40,309 nucleotides of DNA from a virus: positions 1-40,309 of the IMG/VR virus record IMGVR_UViG_3300042261_001253; one strand, given 5' to 3'. The translations under genes were made by a program, and so were the position numbers. Below the pieces are notes generated by a model. It worked only from the letters and a program-made list of their open reading frames with translations. It was not told where the DNA came from and ran no database searches. Numbering within the stretch: position 1 is the first letter of the stretch; each line of letters opens with the position of its first letter. Positions 11,798 through 31,548 of the stretch are shown here, piece after piece.

Positions 11798-12931
11798 TTA
11801 CAACTGGAAATTTGTAAATGAATCTGGTCTGATGTCCTGATTGATTCCTCCAATTATATAGGATTCTAAATTTTCTTCCTGTGGAGGGTTCTGAACATTT
11901 TTACTATTAAGCCAATCATCAGTCCAAGGAAGTGGATTATTGCTGGCGGAAATATCATACATTGGTTTAAGTCCAATTGCCTTCATTCTACGATTTGCAA
12001 TCCATTCAACATAATTGAATAAGAGTTTATCGTTAAGACCAATCATTGAACCATCCTTAAAAAGATATTCCGCCCAACGCTTTTCTTCATTTACGGTTTT
12101 TTCAAACATTGAATAAACATATTGTTCCTCTTCCTTGGCAATCTTTTGCATATCAGGATCATCAGATCCGTTTTTCCATTTTGTAAGAATATTCTGTGTC
12201 AAAGTGAGATGATATCTTTCATCAAGAGCAATCTTAGAAATGATTTTGGCAGATCCTTCCATGAGATTGAGTTCACCAAAGGCAAAAGAACATGCAAAAG
12301 AAACATAGAATCTAATACCTTCAAGAATATTTACATTGGAAATTGCACGATACAGTTTTCTCTTTACTTCATACAGTTCATTTTTACCAAGATCAACCCC
12401 TTCTTGATTAAACTTCCACATATTTGATGAACTATAATTCTGTGCAGACTGCAGATAGTCATCATAAGATTCAGTTACACTATTTGCCCTCTCTAGAATA
12501 TTTTCATCATCAATAATTTTATCAAAAACATCAGAAGGATTTGAATAGACATTCTTAATAATATAGGTATAGGAATAACTATGAATCATCTCCATAAATT
12601 CCCACACAATCATACAAGATTCTAGTTCTGGAAGAGAACAGTAAGGAAGAAATGCCAACCCAGGCCCACGACCCTGAACAGAGTCGAGCATAATCTGATA
12701 TTTCAAGTTGGAGGTAAAAATATGTTTTTGTTCTGGTCGAAGTTTTTGATAATCTGCCCTATCTTTTGTTAGTGGATATGCTTCCGGTCTCCAAAATGCT
12801 CCAAGTTGTTCCTGAGTAAGTTTATAAAAGACCGGAAACTTATGAACATCATAACGCTGAACTCCAAGAGGAGCGCCAAAAAACATTGGTTGTTTTGTGG
12901 ATTCAACTTTATTTTTATTAAAAACGGTCAT
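11798..12931 (-). CDS. nrdB: Ribonucleotide reductase class Ia small subunit
   Basis: This 377-residue product is the diiron-tyrosyl radical subunit that reduces NDPs with NrdA. Metal-ligand helices are visible: WEFMEMIHS (Glu, His), then EGIRFY and LDERYHLTL (Glu, His). The C-terminal tail, which docks on NrdA in this family, ends DSFTNFQL. ATG 12931 is chosen because AAAAGG lies just upstream; the frame extends 12 codons further. It follows the nrdA C-terminal gene by 10 bp, forming an operon that supplies dNTPs for phage replication. Confidence 0.93.
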   Translation of the reverse strand: MTVFNKNKVESTKQPMFFGAPLGVQRYDVHKFPVFYKLTQEQLGAFWRPEAYPLTKDRADYQKLRPEQKHIFTSNLKYQIMLDSVQGRGPGLAFLPYCSLPELESCMIVWEFMEMIHSYSYTYIIKNVYSNPSDVFDKIIDDENILERANSVTESYDDYLQSAQNYSSSNMWKFNQEGVDLGKNELYEVKRKLYRAISNVNILEGIRFYVSFACSFAFGELNLMEGSAKIISKIALDERYHLTLTQNILTKWKNGSDDPDMQKIAKEEEQYVYSMFEKTVNEEKRWAEYLFKDGSMIGLNDKLLFNYVEWIANRRMKAIGLKPMYDISASNNPLPWTDDWLNSKNVQNPPQEENLESYIIGGINQDIRPDSFTNFQL

Positions 12932-12941
12932 TCCTTTTACC

Positions 12942-14009
12942 TCAGATTTTGCAACTGTCACAATCACCTTCTCCTTCTTCTAAAATTTCATTTATCAAGT
13001 TTTCTAGTTCTGTATCATCTTTTTTACCATCATAGGTATTCATATAATAGGCCGTCTTATTCCCTTTTTTGTATGCACTAAGAAAATCATTAACAACAAC
13101 ACTCATTGGAACTTTTTTGTCTGGATAATTTTCTGGATTATAACTCCAGTTTGCACTAATTGCCTGATCAAAAAACTTTTGCATTGCGGCAACAATATTG
13201 AAATATCCTTCATTAGATTTCATGTCCCACAGAAGAGTATAATTGTTCTTGAGTGTTGAATATTGTGGAACAATTTGGCGAATTTTTCTTTTCACCGATA
13301 GATATCCTCTTGGAGGTTCAATACCATTAGTAGCATTAGAAGTTTTTGATGATGTCTCTGATGGCATTGCTGCCGTGAGTGTTGTGTTTCTTAGACCATA
13401 AGAAACAATATCCTTCCTAAGGGATTCCCAATCATGATGAAGAGGTTCTGTAATAAATTCGTCAATATCTTTTTTATAAGTATCAATTGGTAGAATTCCC
13501 TGAGAGTACTTTGTATCTACAAATCCTTCACATACACCTTTTTCCTTTGCAAGTTGGTTAGATGCCTTTAATAAGTAATACTGAAGACTTTCTGAGAATT
13601 TGTGTACGGCATTACATGCTTCTGGATCATCATACTTAAGACCAAGTTTTGCAAGATAGTGTGCAAGACCAATAACACCAACTCCTAGAGAACGATACTT
13701 TTTAGTAGAAATTTCCGCCGCTTTTACTGGATATTCTTGAATATCAATGAGTTCATCTAGACTTCTTACTACAAGATCGCAGCACTCTTCAATTTCTTTT
13801 TCAGATTTGATGATACCACAATTGAGGGCAGAAAGAATACAGAGGGCAATAGAACCATTTGTATCGTCAATATGCTCAATTGGTTCTGTGAGAAGAAGAA
13901 TTTCCATGCAGTTGTGAATTAGTATATCATTCGCAAAGAAATTATGAGTTCCCTCTACGGTAATGTCATAAACTGGAATTTCTTCTTCTAAATGTTCAAT
14001 TTTTATCAT
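12942..14009 (-). CDS. nrdA: NrdA C-terminal half with split-intein C-part
   Basis: The gene starts with its own strong ribosome site (AAGGAGAG) at ATG 14009. Residues 1-33 are the C-terminal part of an intein: block F (VYDITVEGTHNFFAND) and block G (ILIHN, then C). Residue 34 onward is NrdA: CMEILLLTEP at the active-site loop, the barrel, and a C-terminal redox pair (CDSCKI). The C-extein is 322 residues. It must be joined to the product of 14045-15730 to give active enzyme. The gene begins 35 bp after the stop of that gene, with no endonuclease between. Confidence 0.93.
   Translation of the reverse strand: MIKIEHLEEEIPVYDITVEGTHNFFANDILIHNCMEILLLTEPIEHIDDTNGSIALCILSALNCGIIKSEKEIEECCDLVVRSLDELIDIQEYPVKAAEISTKKYRSLGVGVIGLAHYLAKLGLKYDDPEACNAVHKFSESLQYYLLKASNQLAKEKGVCEGFVDTKYSQGILPIDTYKKDIDEFITEPLHHDWESLRKDIVSYGLRNTTLTAAMPSETSSKTSNATNGIEPPRGYLSVKRKIRQIVPQYSTLKNNYTLLWDMKSNEGYFNIVAAMQKFFDQAISANWSYNPENYPDKKVPMSVVVNDFLSAYKKGNKTAYYMNTYDGKKDDTELENLINEILEEGEGDCDSCKI
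13911..14009 (-). other. Split intein, C-terminal part (33 aa)
   Basis: Codons 1-33 of the downstream nrdA gene encode intein blocks F and G, ending in the conserved His-Asn. The Asn is the residue that cyclises. The next residue, Cys34, is the +1 nucleophile and also the NrdA radical cysteine. Confidence 0.93.
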
Positions 14010-14044
14010 TTTGTTCTCTCCTTAGAAATTACACTTCCTATAAA

Positions 14045-15730
14045 TTAATTAATCAATAATTCATCTGTTTCTACTAAATCTTTCGCAATAACATATCCAC
14101 GATTTTTTGTAAATACTTTGTGCTCTGGTGTCACCACAATACTCTTACCACTTTCTTCATCAGTAATTTTCATTACTTTTGCTTTTGGTGAAGTTTCTGC
14201 AAAGTCGGTTATTGTTGCCCATTTCTTTTCACCAGTTTCAATATCATATGAAAGAACTTCAATTTGAGGAGCATTTGAGTCATACATTTCACCCTGCCTC
14301 ATAATAATATAATCTTCCAGGTCTTCTATTTGAATTTCTTTTTCAAGAACATTCCAATACCAAACACCATATTGGTCTCCAACAGATTCTGGATATCTAA
14401 TTTTAATTTTAGTATCACCAGCAACACAGAGGTTACTCATCCGAATATTCTTTAGATAAGGACTATGAGTATTTGCATGGTCAATGTTCAGAATGTAAAT
14501 TCTACCAGTATCACTTCTTTCATTTAGAATTTCTAAAATGAGTTCTTGGGCGCCGACAGTTTTCTTAGGAATAGACTCATCTCGTTCGTAACGAACATAT
14601 AACTCATCAAATCCATCAGTACCAAAAGAATCATAAAGACCAGGAACATCGTGCGGAGAGAACAAAGTAATTTCTTCATTTTTAATGAACCTTTCGTAAA
14701 AAAGTTTAGAAATTGATACTGCATAATCTAGAGATCTCGCACGATTCTCATCATTACCCTTTTCATTTTTGAGGACGATTAGTTCTTTGATTTCTTGATG
14801 CCAAATTGGGAAGAATAGTGTTGCCGAACCTTTTCTCAGTCCACCCTGTGAACAAGAATTAAGATCGCCTTCAAATGATTTGATAAAGGGGACAATTCCA
14901 GTATGAACAACTTCACCATTGCGAATCTTGCTACCAAGACCACGAATTCTACCAACATTAAGACCAATACCAGACTTTGCAGAGACATAACGCATCATAG
15001 CACTTTTAGTTGCAATAATAGATTCCATAGAATCTCCACAATCTAGAAGTGTGCAACTGGCGTACTGTTTCTTTTTAGTTCTTACTCCAGCCATTACTGG
15101 TGTTGGAATATTAATCTTGTGTTTACTAATAGCATCATAATATCGTCTAACATAAGACATTCTAGTATCTTTTGGATATCTGGAGAATGTAACCAAAGAA
15201 ACCAACATGTACATGTATTGTGGGGTTTCATATACAGTCTTCGTTGACCTATCTTGCACTAGGTATTTGTCTACAATTTCTCTGAGTCCTGCATAGGTAA
15301 ACAAATAGTCTCTGTCATGATTAATAAATCCATTGGCAAGATCAAGTTCGTCTTCAGTATAAAGATCAAGTACCTCAGAATCATAAAAACCAAGTTTAAT
15401 TGTTCTATTGATATGATCAATCAGATGAGGAAGTTCAATTCTTCCACCATAAAGACGCTTACGAATAGCAAATAAAAGAAGACGAGCAGCAACAAACTGA
15501 TAATTTGGATGATCAAGACTAATCAAATCAGATGCAGATTTAATAAGAATCTCTTGAACTTCTGCAGTCGTAATACCATCATAAAACTGAATACCAGACT
15601 GCATCTCTACTTGGGATGCGGATACACCAGAAAGATCTTTACATGCCTCTTCTACCATCAAGTGAAGTTTGTTTAGGTCAAGACCCTCAATCGATCCGTC
15701 TCTTTTAATAACCTTTGTTCCGTTACTCAT
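14045..15730 (-). CDS. nrdA: NrdA N-terminal half with split-intein N-part
   Basis: Residues 1-95 form an ATP-cone (MSNGTKVIKRDGSIEGLDL), the allosteric activity domain. The catalytic domain includes YASCTLLDCGDS (first redox cysteine) and KSGIGLN; it runs to residue 434 (IRMSNL). Residues 435-561 are intein: block A CVAGDTKIKI and block B VVTPEHKVF, then the frame stops at DELLIN. N-extein (434) plus C-extein (322) gives 756 residues, about normal for NrdA. Its ATG overlaps the stop of gp61 (ATGA). Confidence 0.94.
   Translation of the reverse strand: MSNGTKVIKRDGSIEGLDLNKLHLMVEEACKDLSGVSASQVEMQSGIQFYDGITTAEVQEILIKSASDLISLDHPNYQFVAARLLLFAIRKRLYGGRIELPHLIDHINRTIKLGFYDSEVLDLYTEDELDLANGFINHDRDYLFTYAGLREIVDKYLVQDRSTKTVYETPQYMYMLVSLVTFSRYPKDTRMSYVRRYYDAISKHKINIPTPVMAGVRTKKKQYASCTLLDCGDSMESIIATKSAMMRYVSAKSGIGLNVGRIRGLGSKIRNGEVVHTGIVPFIKSFEGDLNSCSQGGLRKGSATLFFPIWHQEIKELIVLKNEKGNDENRARSLDYAVSISKLFYERFIKNEEITLFSPHDVPGLYDSFGTDGFDELYVRYERDESIPKKTVGAQELILEILNERSDTGRIYILNIDHANTHSPYLKNIRMSNLCVAGDTKIKIRYPESVGDQYGVWYWNVLEKEIQIEDLEDYIIMRQGEMYDSNAPQIEVLSYDIETGEKKWATITDFAETSPKAKVMKITDEESGKSIVVTPEHKVFTKNRGYVIAKDLVETDELLIN
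14048..14428 (-). other. Split intein, N-terminal part (127 aa)
   Basis: It begins with Cys1 (CVAGDTK), includes the TPEH of block B and ends at the natural stop codon. No LAGLIDADG or other endonuclease motif is present. The length is typical of the N-half of naturally split inteins. The extein junction is SNL/C. Confidence 0.93.
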
Positions 15731-16737
15731 ACTTTCTTCCAGTTGTTAAACTTAATTTTTGCTTCTAAACCTGAATGTGTATTTAATTTTAACATATCCA
15801 TAACTTTATGTCCAGATAGAACAAGATCATTAATATCTTTTTCTATTATGTTACTAGGCCAAATCACTACCTTATCACCCCTGTTGATGGTTTTTGATAT
15901 TCTTTCGACAATTTCACGATTGCGTGGTTCATTATCAAAAACCCAAATATAATCTCTCCAACCAAACGACCGAATATCAATATCAGACCCACACATAGCA
16001 ACAGCATTTTCAACGAGCGTAGAATCAAAAGGTCCTTCAACAATATAAATCGATTTTGAAGAATCCACCTTTTCAAGACCATAAATTTTTGGTGCATTCT
16101 CAGAAAGCATCACGGTGATATATTTATTTGGTGAGGATCCAAGTGCTCTTCCCTGAAATCCTATTAAGTTAGAGTCAATATCATACATTGGTATAATAAT
16201 GCGTTCCTCTTCCATACCAATAATGTTAAAAGTATGTTTTTGAGTATTTGTCCACTCCTTAAATTTATCAGCAAAATAAAACTTTTCTGGATTTAGTTTT
16301 CGCTTTTCTAGATACTCTCTGGCGATGGGAACTTCTGAAGCTTTGGGCAAATCAAGTTTTTTTTTAAAAACAGGTTTAACAAACTCAAATTTAGGTTCCT
16401 CAACCACAAAGTTTCTACCAGTATGCCCCTCCTTAAACTTATCCATAATGTATTGCTTATGGAGTATAGGATCCATCTCTTTGAGAAAGTTATTAAAGGA
16501 TAAACTTGCTCCACAATTATGGCACTTAAAATTTGTATTATTCTTAACCGAATATAAGTATCCTCTCGTTTTATTCTTATTTTTTTTAGAATCTCCGCAA
16601 AGGCAACATCTGAAGTTATACAAATCTTGTTTTACTCTCTTAAATTTTTGCAATCTTGAAGAAACTAGGTTTATATATTTTAAATCAATAAAATCCAAAT
16701 CAACCTCTTTTACAATTTTTTCCGTGCCACCTAGCAT
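15727..16737 (-). CDS. 61: DNA primase, T4 gp61-like
   Basis: A Cys4 zinc ribbon (RCCLCGDS and KCHNCGAS, about residues 43-76) is followed by a Toprim domain (YIVEGPFDS near 230; DNEPRN further on). The protein makes RNA primers with the gp41 helicase. ATG 16737 gives 336 residues, but its first 38 bp overlap the endonuclease gene. A TTG at 16698 (LDFIDLKYINL) with AAAGAGG just upstream is an attractive alternative start that removes the overlap. Confidence 0.88.
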   Translation of the reverse strand: MLGGTEKIVKEVDLDFIDLKYINLVSSRLQKFKRVKQDLYNFRCCLCGDSKKNKNKTRGYLYSVKNNTNFKCHNCGASLSFNNFLKEMDPILHKQYIMDKFKEGHTGRNFVVEEPKFEFVKPVFKKKLDLPKASEVPIAREYLEKRKLNPEKFYFADKFKEWTNTQKHTFNIIGMEEERIIIPMYDIDSNLIGFQGRALGSSPNKYITVMLSENAPKIYGLEKVDSSKSIYIVEGPFDSTLVENAVAMCGSDIDIRSFGWRDYIWVFDNEPRNREIVERISKTINRGDKVVIWPSNIIEKDINDLVLSGHKVMDMLKLNTHSGLEAKIKFNNWKKV

Positions 16738-17221
16738 AATTTCCAGGCGAGACCATTATGCCACACTTTTCACATTCTATCAACCTTTTATTAATGTGAT
16801 CGAAACAACCTTTTTTACCATAGTTTTGATTTTTTTCTCCAATCATAGATTCACTCACTTTTTTATTTCTCTCTTTTGTAATTTTTGGTTTATCACCTTT
16901 CTTAAAACTTCCCCCATTAGTCATTCCAGGTTTCATAGGATTATTATTTTTCATATATTCAGATATTTTTTTTCTAACCTCAGGCATATCGCAATTGTTG
17001 TGTATTACTTTATTTTCACCATTATTAATGGTATTAAGTTGATTTATCCAATATCTTTCTCTTTCATAGAGAATATCATTAGTAGTCTCTTCCAATATCT
17101 CATACTCACAATCAAGAAATCTACCAAATCGTTTATGTTGTTTTCTCCTTCTTTCCAAATCTATACTACATCCAACATAAATTGGATTAGTATCTCTATA
17201 ATAACAATATACACCTACCAT
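16700..17221 (-). CDS. GIY-YIG homing endonuclease
   Basis: The N-terminus is a clear GIY-YIG nuclease: GVYCYY, IYVGCSIDLERRR (YVG with downstream Arg) and a catalytic Glu in the YERERYWI region. The C-terminal half has modular DNA-binding repeats (KKISEYMKNNNPM, KKVSESMIGEKNQNYGKKG) like NUMOD3, and ends with a CEKC..H..C zinc-type motif. It overlaps the annotated gp61 start. Free-standing nucleases of this type spread between T4-like phages by cutting intein- or intron-like target sites or unoccupied loci. Confidence 0.85.
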   Translation of the reverse strand: MVGVYCYYRDTNPIYVGCSIDLERRRKQHKRFGRFLDCEYEILEETTNDILYERERYWINQLNTINNGENKVIHNNCDMPEVRKKISEYMKNNNPMKPGMTNGGSFKKGDKPKITKERNKKVSESMIGEKNQNYGKKGCFDHINKRLIECEKCGIMVSPGNYARWHGKNCKRG

Positions 17222-30110: not shown

Positions 30111-30493
30111 TTTTTTCCTCCAGTTTCAAATTTTGATTTTATAAAAGTAAGTTGTTCTTTAGTAAGAATTCTCAAAGCCTGTTTTGCCTTTTCATCATTA
30201 AAACCATAATATTGTTTGACATAATCAAGATCTTTGATTTTATCTTGTCGGAGCCAGGGAGAATATCTCTTCTTTTTCCTCAGACTATTTATAAAAAAGT
30301 CATATTGCATCTTCTTTGGAAGAAAATGATACTGATTCATTTCGTTCGCAAACATAATACAATCAATGTGTCCAGACAGACATTTATTGATGATATATGG
30401 GGGATATTCCTTCTCAAGTGAAGGATCTTCATCAATCAGATGTTTCTTCGTCTGATTGATCGAGTTTAACCAATCTTTCAATTCAATTGTCAT
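30107..30493 (-). CDS. 62: Clamp loader small subunit, gp62-like
   Basis: The 128-residue product has the typical gp62 middle segment YHFLPKKMQYDFFINSLRKKKRY and is placed between gp44 and RegA. It is shorter than T4 gp62 (187 aa). With gp44 it opens and loads the gp45 clamp. Its ATG overlaps the stop of the accessory gene at 30490-31548, so the inserted cassette has kept translational coupling. Confidence 0.85.
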   Translation of the reverse strand: MTIELKDWLNSINQTKKHLIDEDPSLEKEYPPYIINKCLSGHIDCIMFANEMNQYHFLPKKMQYDFFINSLRKKKRYSPWLRQDKIKDLDYVKQYYGFNDEKAKQALRILTKEQLTFIKSKFETGGKK

Positions 30494-31548
30494 CTAATAA
30501 TCTCCATATCATTACCATGTTTCCACAATTCAAGTTCTGTCCTCAATCGATTCTCAGATTTGAGTTTTTCATACCTTTTAGACGCCTTTTTTTTCCACCA
30601 TTCAATAACTTCTTCTGGTTCATATCCAAATTTAGAAAGATAATATCTTTTCTTTTCAGTCAATGTTTTTGCATGTTCAATACAGGAATTAAACTCATCC
30701 AACTTTGAATGACCTTTTAAAGAATTTCTAATAATGGAAATCATCTTGGTTTGAATTTTCAATTTTTTTGATGACTTATCTGCAGAAATAAGTCTTTCCC
30801 CACCATTTGCAGTATTATTAAACCACCAGAACATTTCCTTAAAGTAATCGTCATGAAAAAGAGGAAGAAAATTACTTTCAGTATCTCCTATGTGTCGAAT
30901 ATAAGGTTTAAGACCATCATACATGGATACCCCTTTTGTTGTACCGTACAATGAAGTTGTTTCGAAGTATTGAAGATCAATTCCATATTTACGATCAAAT
31001 TGTCGTTTGAGTTCATTAGAAGACGCCAATAGAGCAAGAAGTTTCCCACCAAGATAATTATATCCAAATGGCTGTACAGGAACAATATTAAATCCCATTA
31101 CAAACTCACTGTTAATTCTTGAAAGTGAAAGTACTTCACCAAAATAATCATTTCTTGGTTTTGAATTGATAGTTGGTGATCCAAAACGAACAACACCTAC
31201 TATTTTATTTGTACTATCCTCGGTCACAATCCACTTTAAAGTTCTGCCAGGAATTGCTTCCTCAATAGGATTTGAAGCAGTATCATTTAAGATTTCCGAA
31301 TAAAGATCTTGATTATACTTGGATGTTGTTTTTGGGTTAGTATCTACCTCATGAATTGAAAATGACATTTCATTTGGATGAAGATTAAAATTTGAAAATA
31401 TTTCATCTTCAGGTCCAAACAATTTTCCAGATGCATTATCAATTCTACTCTTTTTAACATATCGAAGATAATCATCAATACGATTAAATTTGGAATAATA
31501 TTCTATGAACTGATCTGCTGCCCAAATGGCATTTTCAGGAGATAACAT
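30490..31548 (-). CDS. Accessory protein, DUF4338/DruA-like (tentative)
   Basis: The 352-residue product has a middle region (about 105-230) whose layout resembles DUF4338: KIVGVVRFGSP, a RNDYFG element, NIVPVQPFGYNYLGGKLLALLAS, then FETTSLYG and HIGDTES. DUF4338 occurs in DruA of the Druantia defence system and in other accessory proteins. The C-terminus is basic and Trp-rich (EVIEWWKKKASKRYEKL). The match is by eye and must be tested. It is not part of the usual clamp-loader cluster and forms a two-gene cassette with the gene upstream. Confidence 0.55.
   Translation of the reverse strand: MLSPENAIWAADQFIEYYSKFNRIDDYLRYVKKSRIDNASGKLFGPEDEIFSNFNLHPNEMSFSIHEVDTNPKTTSKYNQDLYSEILNDTASNPIEEAIPGRTLKWIVTEDSTNKIVGVVRFGSPTINSKPRNDYFGEVLSLSRINSEFVMGFNIVPVQPFGYNYLGGKLLALLASSNELKRQFDRKYGIDLQYFETTSLYGTTKGVSMYDGLKPYIRHIGDTESNFLPLFHDDYFKEMFWWFNNTANGGERLISADKSSKKLKIQTKMISIIRNSLKGHSKLDEFNSCIEHAKTLTEKKRYYLSKFGYEPEEVIEWWKKKASKRYEKLKSENRLRTELELWKHGNDMEIIR

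What the first reader, a model, noticed from the sequence alone, without database searches (positions are those of the whole stretch)
13911..14428. Naturally split intein breaks nrdA into two adjacent genes at the radical cysteine
The upstream gene ends SNL followed by a 127-aa intein N-part (CVAGDTK, TPEH); the downstream gene opens with a 33-aa C-part (NFFAND, ILIHN) before CMEI. Joining the exteins gives a 756-aa NrdA with SNL-CMEI, so the +1 nucleophile of splicing is the same cysteine that carries the thiyl radical. Enzyme activity therefore requires trans-splicing. Only 35 bp with a strong ribosome site lie between the halves and no endonuclease gene is present. Split NrdA inteins are known from phage-like metagenomic sequences; the compact layout here deserves comparison.
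Basis: partly seen in the sequence, partly recalled or inferred. Interest (0 to 1): 0.85.

Follow-up and report, generated by a model that had tools for sequence, protein, structure and literature searches.

The report
Split-intein nrdA that lost its endonuclease
An uncultured T4-like (probably cyanobacterial) phage makes its DNA-building-block enzyme NrdA as two proteins that a split intein should stitch together at the catalytic cysteine, and the 35 bases between the genes look like the scar of a lost homing-endonuclease gene that all but one of 44 related split alleles still carry intact.

Summary
nrdA is broken into 14045-15730(-) and 12942-14009(-). The first gene ends in a 127-aa intein N-part and the second begins with a 33-aa C-part. 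The splice point is SNL|C, where the +1 Cys aligns with E. coli NrdA Cys439, the thiyl-radical cysteine. All class 1 splicing motifs are present, the halves match intein profiles, and a continuous relative is predicted to fold like NrdJ-1. Trans-splicing is well supported but not shown. The kind is known: split NrdA inteins ('fractured genes') are reported from ocean metagenomes, and Yersinia phage TG1 has one at the same site. What is new comes from comparison. In all 44 other distinct split alleles that I could collect, the halves are separated by 701-750 bp holding a GIY-YIG endonuclease gene (frameshifted in one). That gene follows a hairpin with a T4-type late promoter in its loop. The window's spacer is the 5' arm of that hairpin joined to the endonuclease's tail and downstream ribosome site: a deletion scar. 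The intein is 88% identical to endonuclease-bearing copies whose NrdA is only about 65% identical, so it arrived horizontally and later lost its endonuclease. The compact state rests on one contig.

The parts
14429..15730 (-). nrdA-N, N-extein: residues 1-434 of NrdA (ATP cone, all-alpha domain, first part of barrel), ending SNL
14048..14428 (-). intein N-part, 127 aa, Cys1 (CVAGDTK) and block B TPEH; stop codon 14045-14047
   Evidence: relatives
14010..14044 (-). 35-bp spacer, read as the scar of an endonuclease-cassette deletion
14023..14041 (-). left part of scar: ATAGGAAGTGTAATTTCTA, the 5' arm of the hairpin that precedes the GIY-YIG gene in relatives
14010..14022 (-). right part of scar: AGGAGAGAACAAA, like the last codons of the relatives' endonuclease gene, which hold the ribosome-binding site of the intein C-part
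13911..14009 (-). intein C-part, 33 aa, block F YDITVEGTHNFF and terminal His-Asn
12942..13910 (-). nrdA-C, C-extein: Cys+1 (= E. coli C439) MEI to the C-terminal CDSCK thiol pair, 322 aa
11798..12931 (-). nrdB, small subunit (probable ATG at 12931; the longer ORF starts at GTG 12967 and would overlap nrdA-C)
15727..16737 (-). gp61-like DNA primase, 4-bp overlap with nrdA-N; same gene order primase-nrdA-nrdB as in cultured cyanophages

Best explanation
This is a naturally split class 1 intein inserted in phage NrdA immediately before the radical cysteine, in its endonuclease-free state. The two half-genes sit in one operon (primase, nrdA-N, nrdA-C, nrdB). The intein halves of the two translated proteins should associate into one HINT fold. 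Cys1 would make the thioester, the radical cysteine of NrdA would act as the +1 nucleophile, and the terminal Asn would cyclise, giving a continuous 756-aa NrdA. The locus arose when a split-intein cassette carrying a GIY-YIG homing endonuclease entered an intein-free nrdA by horizontal transfer. The endonuclease gene, together with its late promoter and half of its regulatory hairpin, was later deleted. The deletion spared the ribosome site of nrdA-C, and the two halves stayed split. Shown here by sequence: the anatomy, the motifs, the transfer signature and the scar. Inferred: splicing activity, homing as the route of transfer, and the order of events.
For: Intein profiles match both halves. 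The N-part matches the NrdJ-1 intein in the PDB (E 5e-11). AlphaFold2 of the nearest continuous relative (L088, 76% identical to the window intein; pLDDT 86) matches NrdJ-1 first in Foldseek (E 1e-10; 52 matches with E <= 0.001, those listed nearly all inteins or other HINT domains). NrdA catalytic residues are kept: C226, N433, C435, E437, C458, the YY pair and the CxxC tail. The intein is under purifying selection (dN/dS 0.08-0.11 against L085-L087). Transfer: against L085 the intein N-part is 87.9% identical in DNA while the exteins are 65.4 and 64.4%, with third positions 76 versus 44%. The extein tree puts the window with empty alleles L004 and L006 (97/91 and 95/88); the intein tree puts it with endonuclease-bearing L085-L087 (98/94). 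Scar: the first 22 nt of the spacer match the relatives' hairpin arm at up to 21/22 (shuffles reach 17 at most). The full hairpin folds at z -7.5, the scar at -0.7. The 3' end keeps the AGGAGA...ATG of the endonuclease tail.
Against: No splicing assay exists for this pair. An assembly error that skipped the endonuclease gene cannot be excluded without reads. The donor-recipient direction and the word 'homing' are inferred; the flanking exteins show no co-conversion at protein level.
Confidence: 0.85

Rival explanations
1. The compact split is ancestral: the split intein existed first, and the endonuclease cassette later inserted into its spacer in other lineages.
For: The window spacer lacks every trace of the endonuclease coding region except its last codons. 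Mobile endonucleases are known to enter intergenic spots (PMC2988022).
Against: The spacer holds exactly one arm of a perfect inverted repeat that makes sense only with the other arm and the late promoter. The window's intein is nested among endonuclease-bearing ones and not basal.
Confidence: 0.07
2. Assembly artefact: the real virus has the endonuclease, and the assembler jumped over it.
For: The endonuclease is about 90-100% identical among most of the collected viruses, a repeat that can break assemblies. Only one contig shows the compact form.
Against: The junction is not at a shared long repeat. The right-hand side (AAGGAGAGAACAAAATG) differs from every collected relative and is a plausible ribosome site, and both arms are read in the right order and register.
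Confidence: 0.06
3. Genes in pieces: NrdA-N and NrdA-C work as a non-covalent complex and the intein parts are vestigial.
For: Aeromonas phage Aeh1 NrdA, split by mobE, works without splicing (PMC3653736 citing Friedrich 2007).
Against: Here the break lies between the active-site residues N433 and C435/E437, and the unspliced proteins would carry 127- and 33-residue tails at the catalytic centre. All splicing residues are kept and the intein evolves under purifying selection.
Confidence: 0.03

Closest known systems
Fractured genes with split inteins in ocean metagenomes (Dassa et al. 2009, NAR 37:2560; 7 nrdA and 2 nrdJ cases according to PMC3653736; NrdA-2 used in PMC7090010)
   Same: nrdA broken in two by a split intein; phage-like; no continuous gene
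   Different: Those loci hold a free-standing endonuclease gene between the halves (recalled from the abstract; the paper is not held here). The window has none, only a scar. I could not align the window with NrdA-2 itself.
Uncultured viral contigs L010-L087 and others of this report (IMG/VR)
   Same: Same SNL|C site, same split point, intein up to 88% identical
   Different: All 44 other distinct split alleles hold a 701-750 bp insert with a GIY-YIG gene (frameshifted in L007) behind a hairpin and late promoter
Yersinia phage vB_YenM_TG1 nrdA (KP202158)
   Same: Cultured phage, T4-like, nrdA split at the same SNL|C site with intein halves of 101 and 33 aa
   Different: HNH endonuclease gene between the halves; intein N-part only 38% identical
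NrdJ-1 split intein (PDB 8ubs)
   Same: HINT fold, closest solved relative by sequence and fold
   Different: Different host gene (class II RNR, from general knowledge); about 30% identity
Regulated T4 homing endonucleases (I-TevI, I-TevII, I-TevIII, segB, Aeh1 mobE; PMC2988022)
   Same: Hairpin upstream of the endonuclease gene with a T4 late promoter inside, as in the window's relatives
   Different: Those reside in introns or intergenic spots, not in a split intein; the window has lost promoter and 3' arm

Membership tests
Naturally split class 1 intein | Two separate genes carrying complementary N- and C-parts | tested here: met
Naturally split class 1 intein | Block A Cys1, block B TxxH, C-terminal His-Asn, Cys+1 | tested here: met
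   CVAGDTK, TPEH, IHN|C read directly; invariant in the ten continuous relatives aligned; the penultimate His is Ser in L375 and L382
Naturally split class 1 intein | HINT fold | tested here: met
   By proxy: continuous relative L088 (76% identical) modelled and matched to inteins; the split pair itself cannot be joined in the tool
Naturally split class 1 intein | Protein trans-splicing activity | not testable with these tools
   needs co-expression
Fractured gene (Dassa 2009) | Conserved enzyme gene broken in two by a split intein | tested here: met
Fractured gene (Dassa 2009) | Free-standing endonuclease gene between the halves | tested here: not met
   35-bp spacer; no match of the relatives' endonuclease in the window
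Class Ia NrdA | Radical Cys, redox Cys pair, Asn/Glu of the active site, Tyr pair, C-terminal thiols in the spliced product | tested here: met
   C435, C226/C458, N433/E437, YY after KTA, CDSCK
Fractured gene without endonuclease, by loss | Scar matching the ends of the endonuclease cassette of relatives | tested here: met

The most novel reading that the evidence does not exclude
The locus records the birth of a stand-alone split intein. An endonuclease-driven split intein lost its endonuclease but could not rejoin its halves, so the virus is now locked into trans-splicing for dNTP synthesis, as cyanobacterial DnaE is. The compact form would be a lasting lineage and not a single-contig accident.
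Probability: 0.4. Interest if true: 0.6.

Novelty: new member of a known kind. Interest (0 to 1): 0.45.

Why it matters
Split inteins without an endonuclease (such as DnaE) have been proposed to descend from inteins broken by endonuclease genes, but intermediates are hard to find. This locus, with its relatives, gives the successive states in one gene at one site: empty, continuous intein, split with a regulated endonuclease, split with a frameshifted endonuclease, and split after endonuclease deletion with a legible scar. It also gives a compact natural split pair whose splicing nucleophile is the catalytic radical of its host enzyme, a family absent from the cultured-phage records searched (except a distant one) and possibly useful as a new trans-splicing tool.

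Tried and rejected
Upstream GIY-YIG gene (16700-17221) as the displaced endonuclease: rejected, no similarity (BLASTP E 0.83). Other copies of the scar in viral contigs: none. A window query of 33 aa alone was too short; a 65-aa query brought almost the same contigs plus L367, L375, L382 and L384, none of which shows a compact split. The six apparent endonuclease-free split loci (L027, L031, L044, L063, L338, L344) start too close to the contig end to show the whole gap; L027 and L044, read, hold endonuclease sequence. Bacterial genomes: no close relative. Whether continuous or split is ancestral for the whole family: left open. Continuous alleles sit in several places of the intein tree and five of them share one linker (SNEKTSTLI and variants), which points to recombination inside inteins. 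L054 might be a re-fused allele (AAAAAAGTTTTAAAG where split relatives have AAAAAAATGCTAAAG or similar), not proven. Dassa 2009 and Carvajal-Vallejos 2012 are not held, so direct comparison with NrdA-2 failed.

Full report
Observation. The window is an IMG/VR virus record. On the minus strand the genes run primase, nrdA-N, nrdA-C, nrdB, the order of cultured cyanophages, where nrdA is one gene. nrdA-N (14045-15730) is 434 residues of NrdA ending SNL plus a 127-residue intein N-part. nrdA-C (12942-14009) is a 33-residue intein C-part plus 322 residues of NrdA beginning CMEI. Intein and NrdA profiles cover both proteins on the expected sides of the junction, and E. coli NrdA aligns up to 436-439 with the first and from 438-439 with the second, so the +1 residue of the intein is the radical cysteine. 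In the 756-aa spliced product the other NrdA residues are in place. The frames differ and stops intervene; dozens of contigs share the same two ends, so this is not a sequencing error.

Comparison. Scans of 2.9 million viral contigs brought more than 80 contigs with this intein. Collapsing identical copies left 45 distinct split alleles including the window. In the 44 others the gap is 701-750 bp and holds a GIY-YIG gene of 221 aa or more; in L007 it is broken by a frameshift. The gene is preceded by a hairpin, AUAGGAAGUGUAAU...AUUACACUUCCUAU. Across 17 variants 95.8% of the cells pair (slid controls 39-49%) and two pairs show a change on both sides, both in L007. The loop holds TATAAATA, the T4 late-promoter sequence, in 42 of 44. 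This is the layout described for I-TevI, I-TevII, I-TevIII, segB and Aeh1 mobE, in which early transcripts fold the hairpin and late transcripts escape it (PMC2988022). Predicted RNA folds agree: z -7.5 for the whole hairpin, no structure from a late start. In most relatives the endonuclease gene overlaps the start of the C-part, whose ribosome site lies in the endonuclease's last codons.

The scar. The window's spacer is TTTATAGGAAGTGTAATTTCTAAGGAGAGAACAAA. Its left part is the 5' arm of that hairpin: 21 of 22 bases in the best relative tested, against at most 17 in 2000 shuffles (alignment). Its right part has the form of the end of the relatives' gaps (AGGAGAAACAAAATG and similar). The loop with the promoter, the 3' arm and the whole coding region are gone. 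One arm of an inverted repeat has no evident purpose alone, so I read this as loss of the endonuclease, not as an ancestral state. The deletion had to leave the ribosome site of nrdA-C, which it did. No other contig has this scar.

Transfer. The window's NrdA is closest to intein-free alleles L004 (86% over 756 columns) and L006. Its intein is closest to L085-L087, all with endonuclease, 86-88% identical, while the exteins of L085 and L087 are 66-68% identical to the window's and those of L086 57-64%. In DNA the N-part is 87.9% and the exteins about 65% identical to L085, with third positions 76 against 44%. dS is about 0.7 for the intein and near saturation for the exteins; dN/dS of the intein is 0.08-0.11. 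Trees of exteins and inteins disagree with good support. Horizontal movement of the cassette is therefore well supported; that it moved by homing is inferred from the endonuclease in its relatives.

Mechanism. Sequence motifs, the NrdJ-1 match, the model of a continuous relative and purifying selection make trans-splicing the likely fate of the two products. It is not shown. The break lies between active-site residues N433 and C435, so an unspliced complex is unlikely to work, though Aeh1 shows that a NrdA in two pieces can function (PMC3653736).

Known or new. Split NrdA inteins are known (Dassa 2009, through PMC3653736 and PMC7090010), and Yersinia phage TG1 has one at the same site with an HNH endonuclease. 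The tblastn search of 50,697 phage records with the intein N-part found only TG1. The window adds an endonuclease-free member whose origin by deletion can be read. I rate it a new member of a known kind with above-average evolutionary interest.

Noticed in passing
16700-17221 (-): GIY-YIG homing-endonuclease-like gene whose end overlaps the start of the primase gene by 38 bp; unrelated to the endonuclease of the split-intein relatives.
   Followed up: partly
1202, 4573, 10460, 11602, 18930, 29076, 30286, 38589 (-): TATAAATA, the T4 late-promoter sequence, occurs 8 times, all on the minus (coding) strand; 2 of 100 shuffles reach 8. Several lie just upstream of ORFs.
   Followed up: no
30490-31548 (-): Protein with a DruA-like domain (Druantia; Pfam E 1.5e-13) in a phage of the T4 kind; full-length match to phrog_19197.
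   Followed up: no
L007/L008 (gap between halves): Endonuclease gene with a frameshift in an A-run and a hairpin in which two GC pairs are changed on both sides to UA: a possible decaying intermediate.
   Followed up: partly
L088, L146, L062, L101, L111, L091, L134, L054, L078, L005, L375, L382: Continuous mini-inteins at the same NrdA site scattered among the split ones; five share the linker SNEKTSTLI (or variants) although their N-parts differ, which suggests recombination within inteins.
   Followed up: partly
L101, L111, L134, L375: The C-extein of these continuous alleles is interrupted or altered again (stop about 50 codons after the junction in three; unrelated tail in L375): perhaps a second intervening element.
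   Followed up: no
L375, L382: Penultimate intein His replaced by Ser (...ILVSN|C...VLVSN|C).
   Followed up: no
L229 (Yersinia phage TG1, KP202158): Cultured phage with nrdA split by intein halves and an HNH endonuclease at the same SNL|C site; annotated only as two NrdA genes and an endonuclease.
   Followed up: partly
L232:4842-5513 (Synechococcus phage DSL-LC02): Putative endonuclease gene between an uninterrupted nrdA and nrdB.
   Followed up: no
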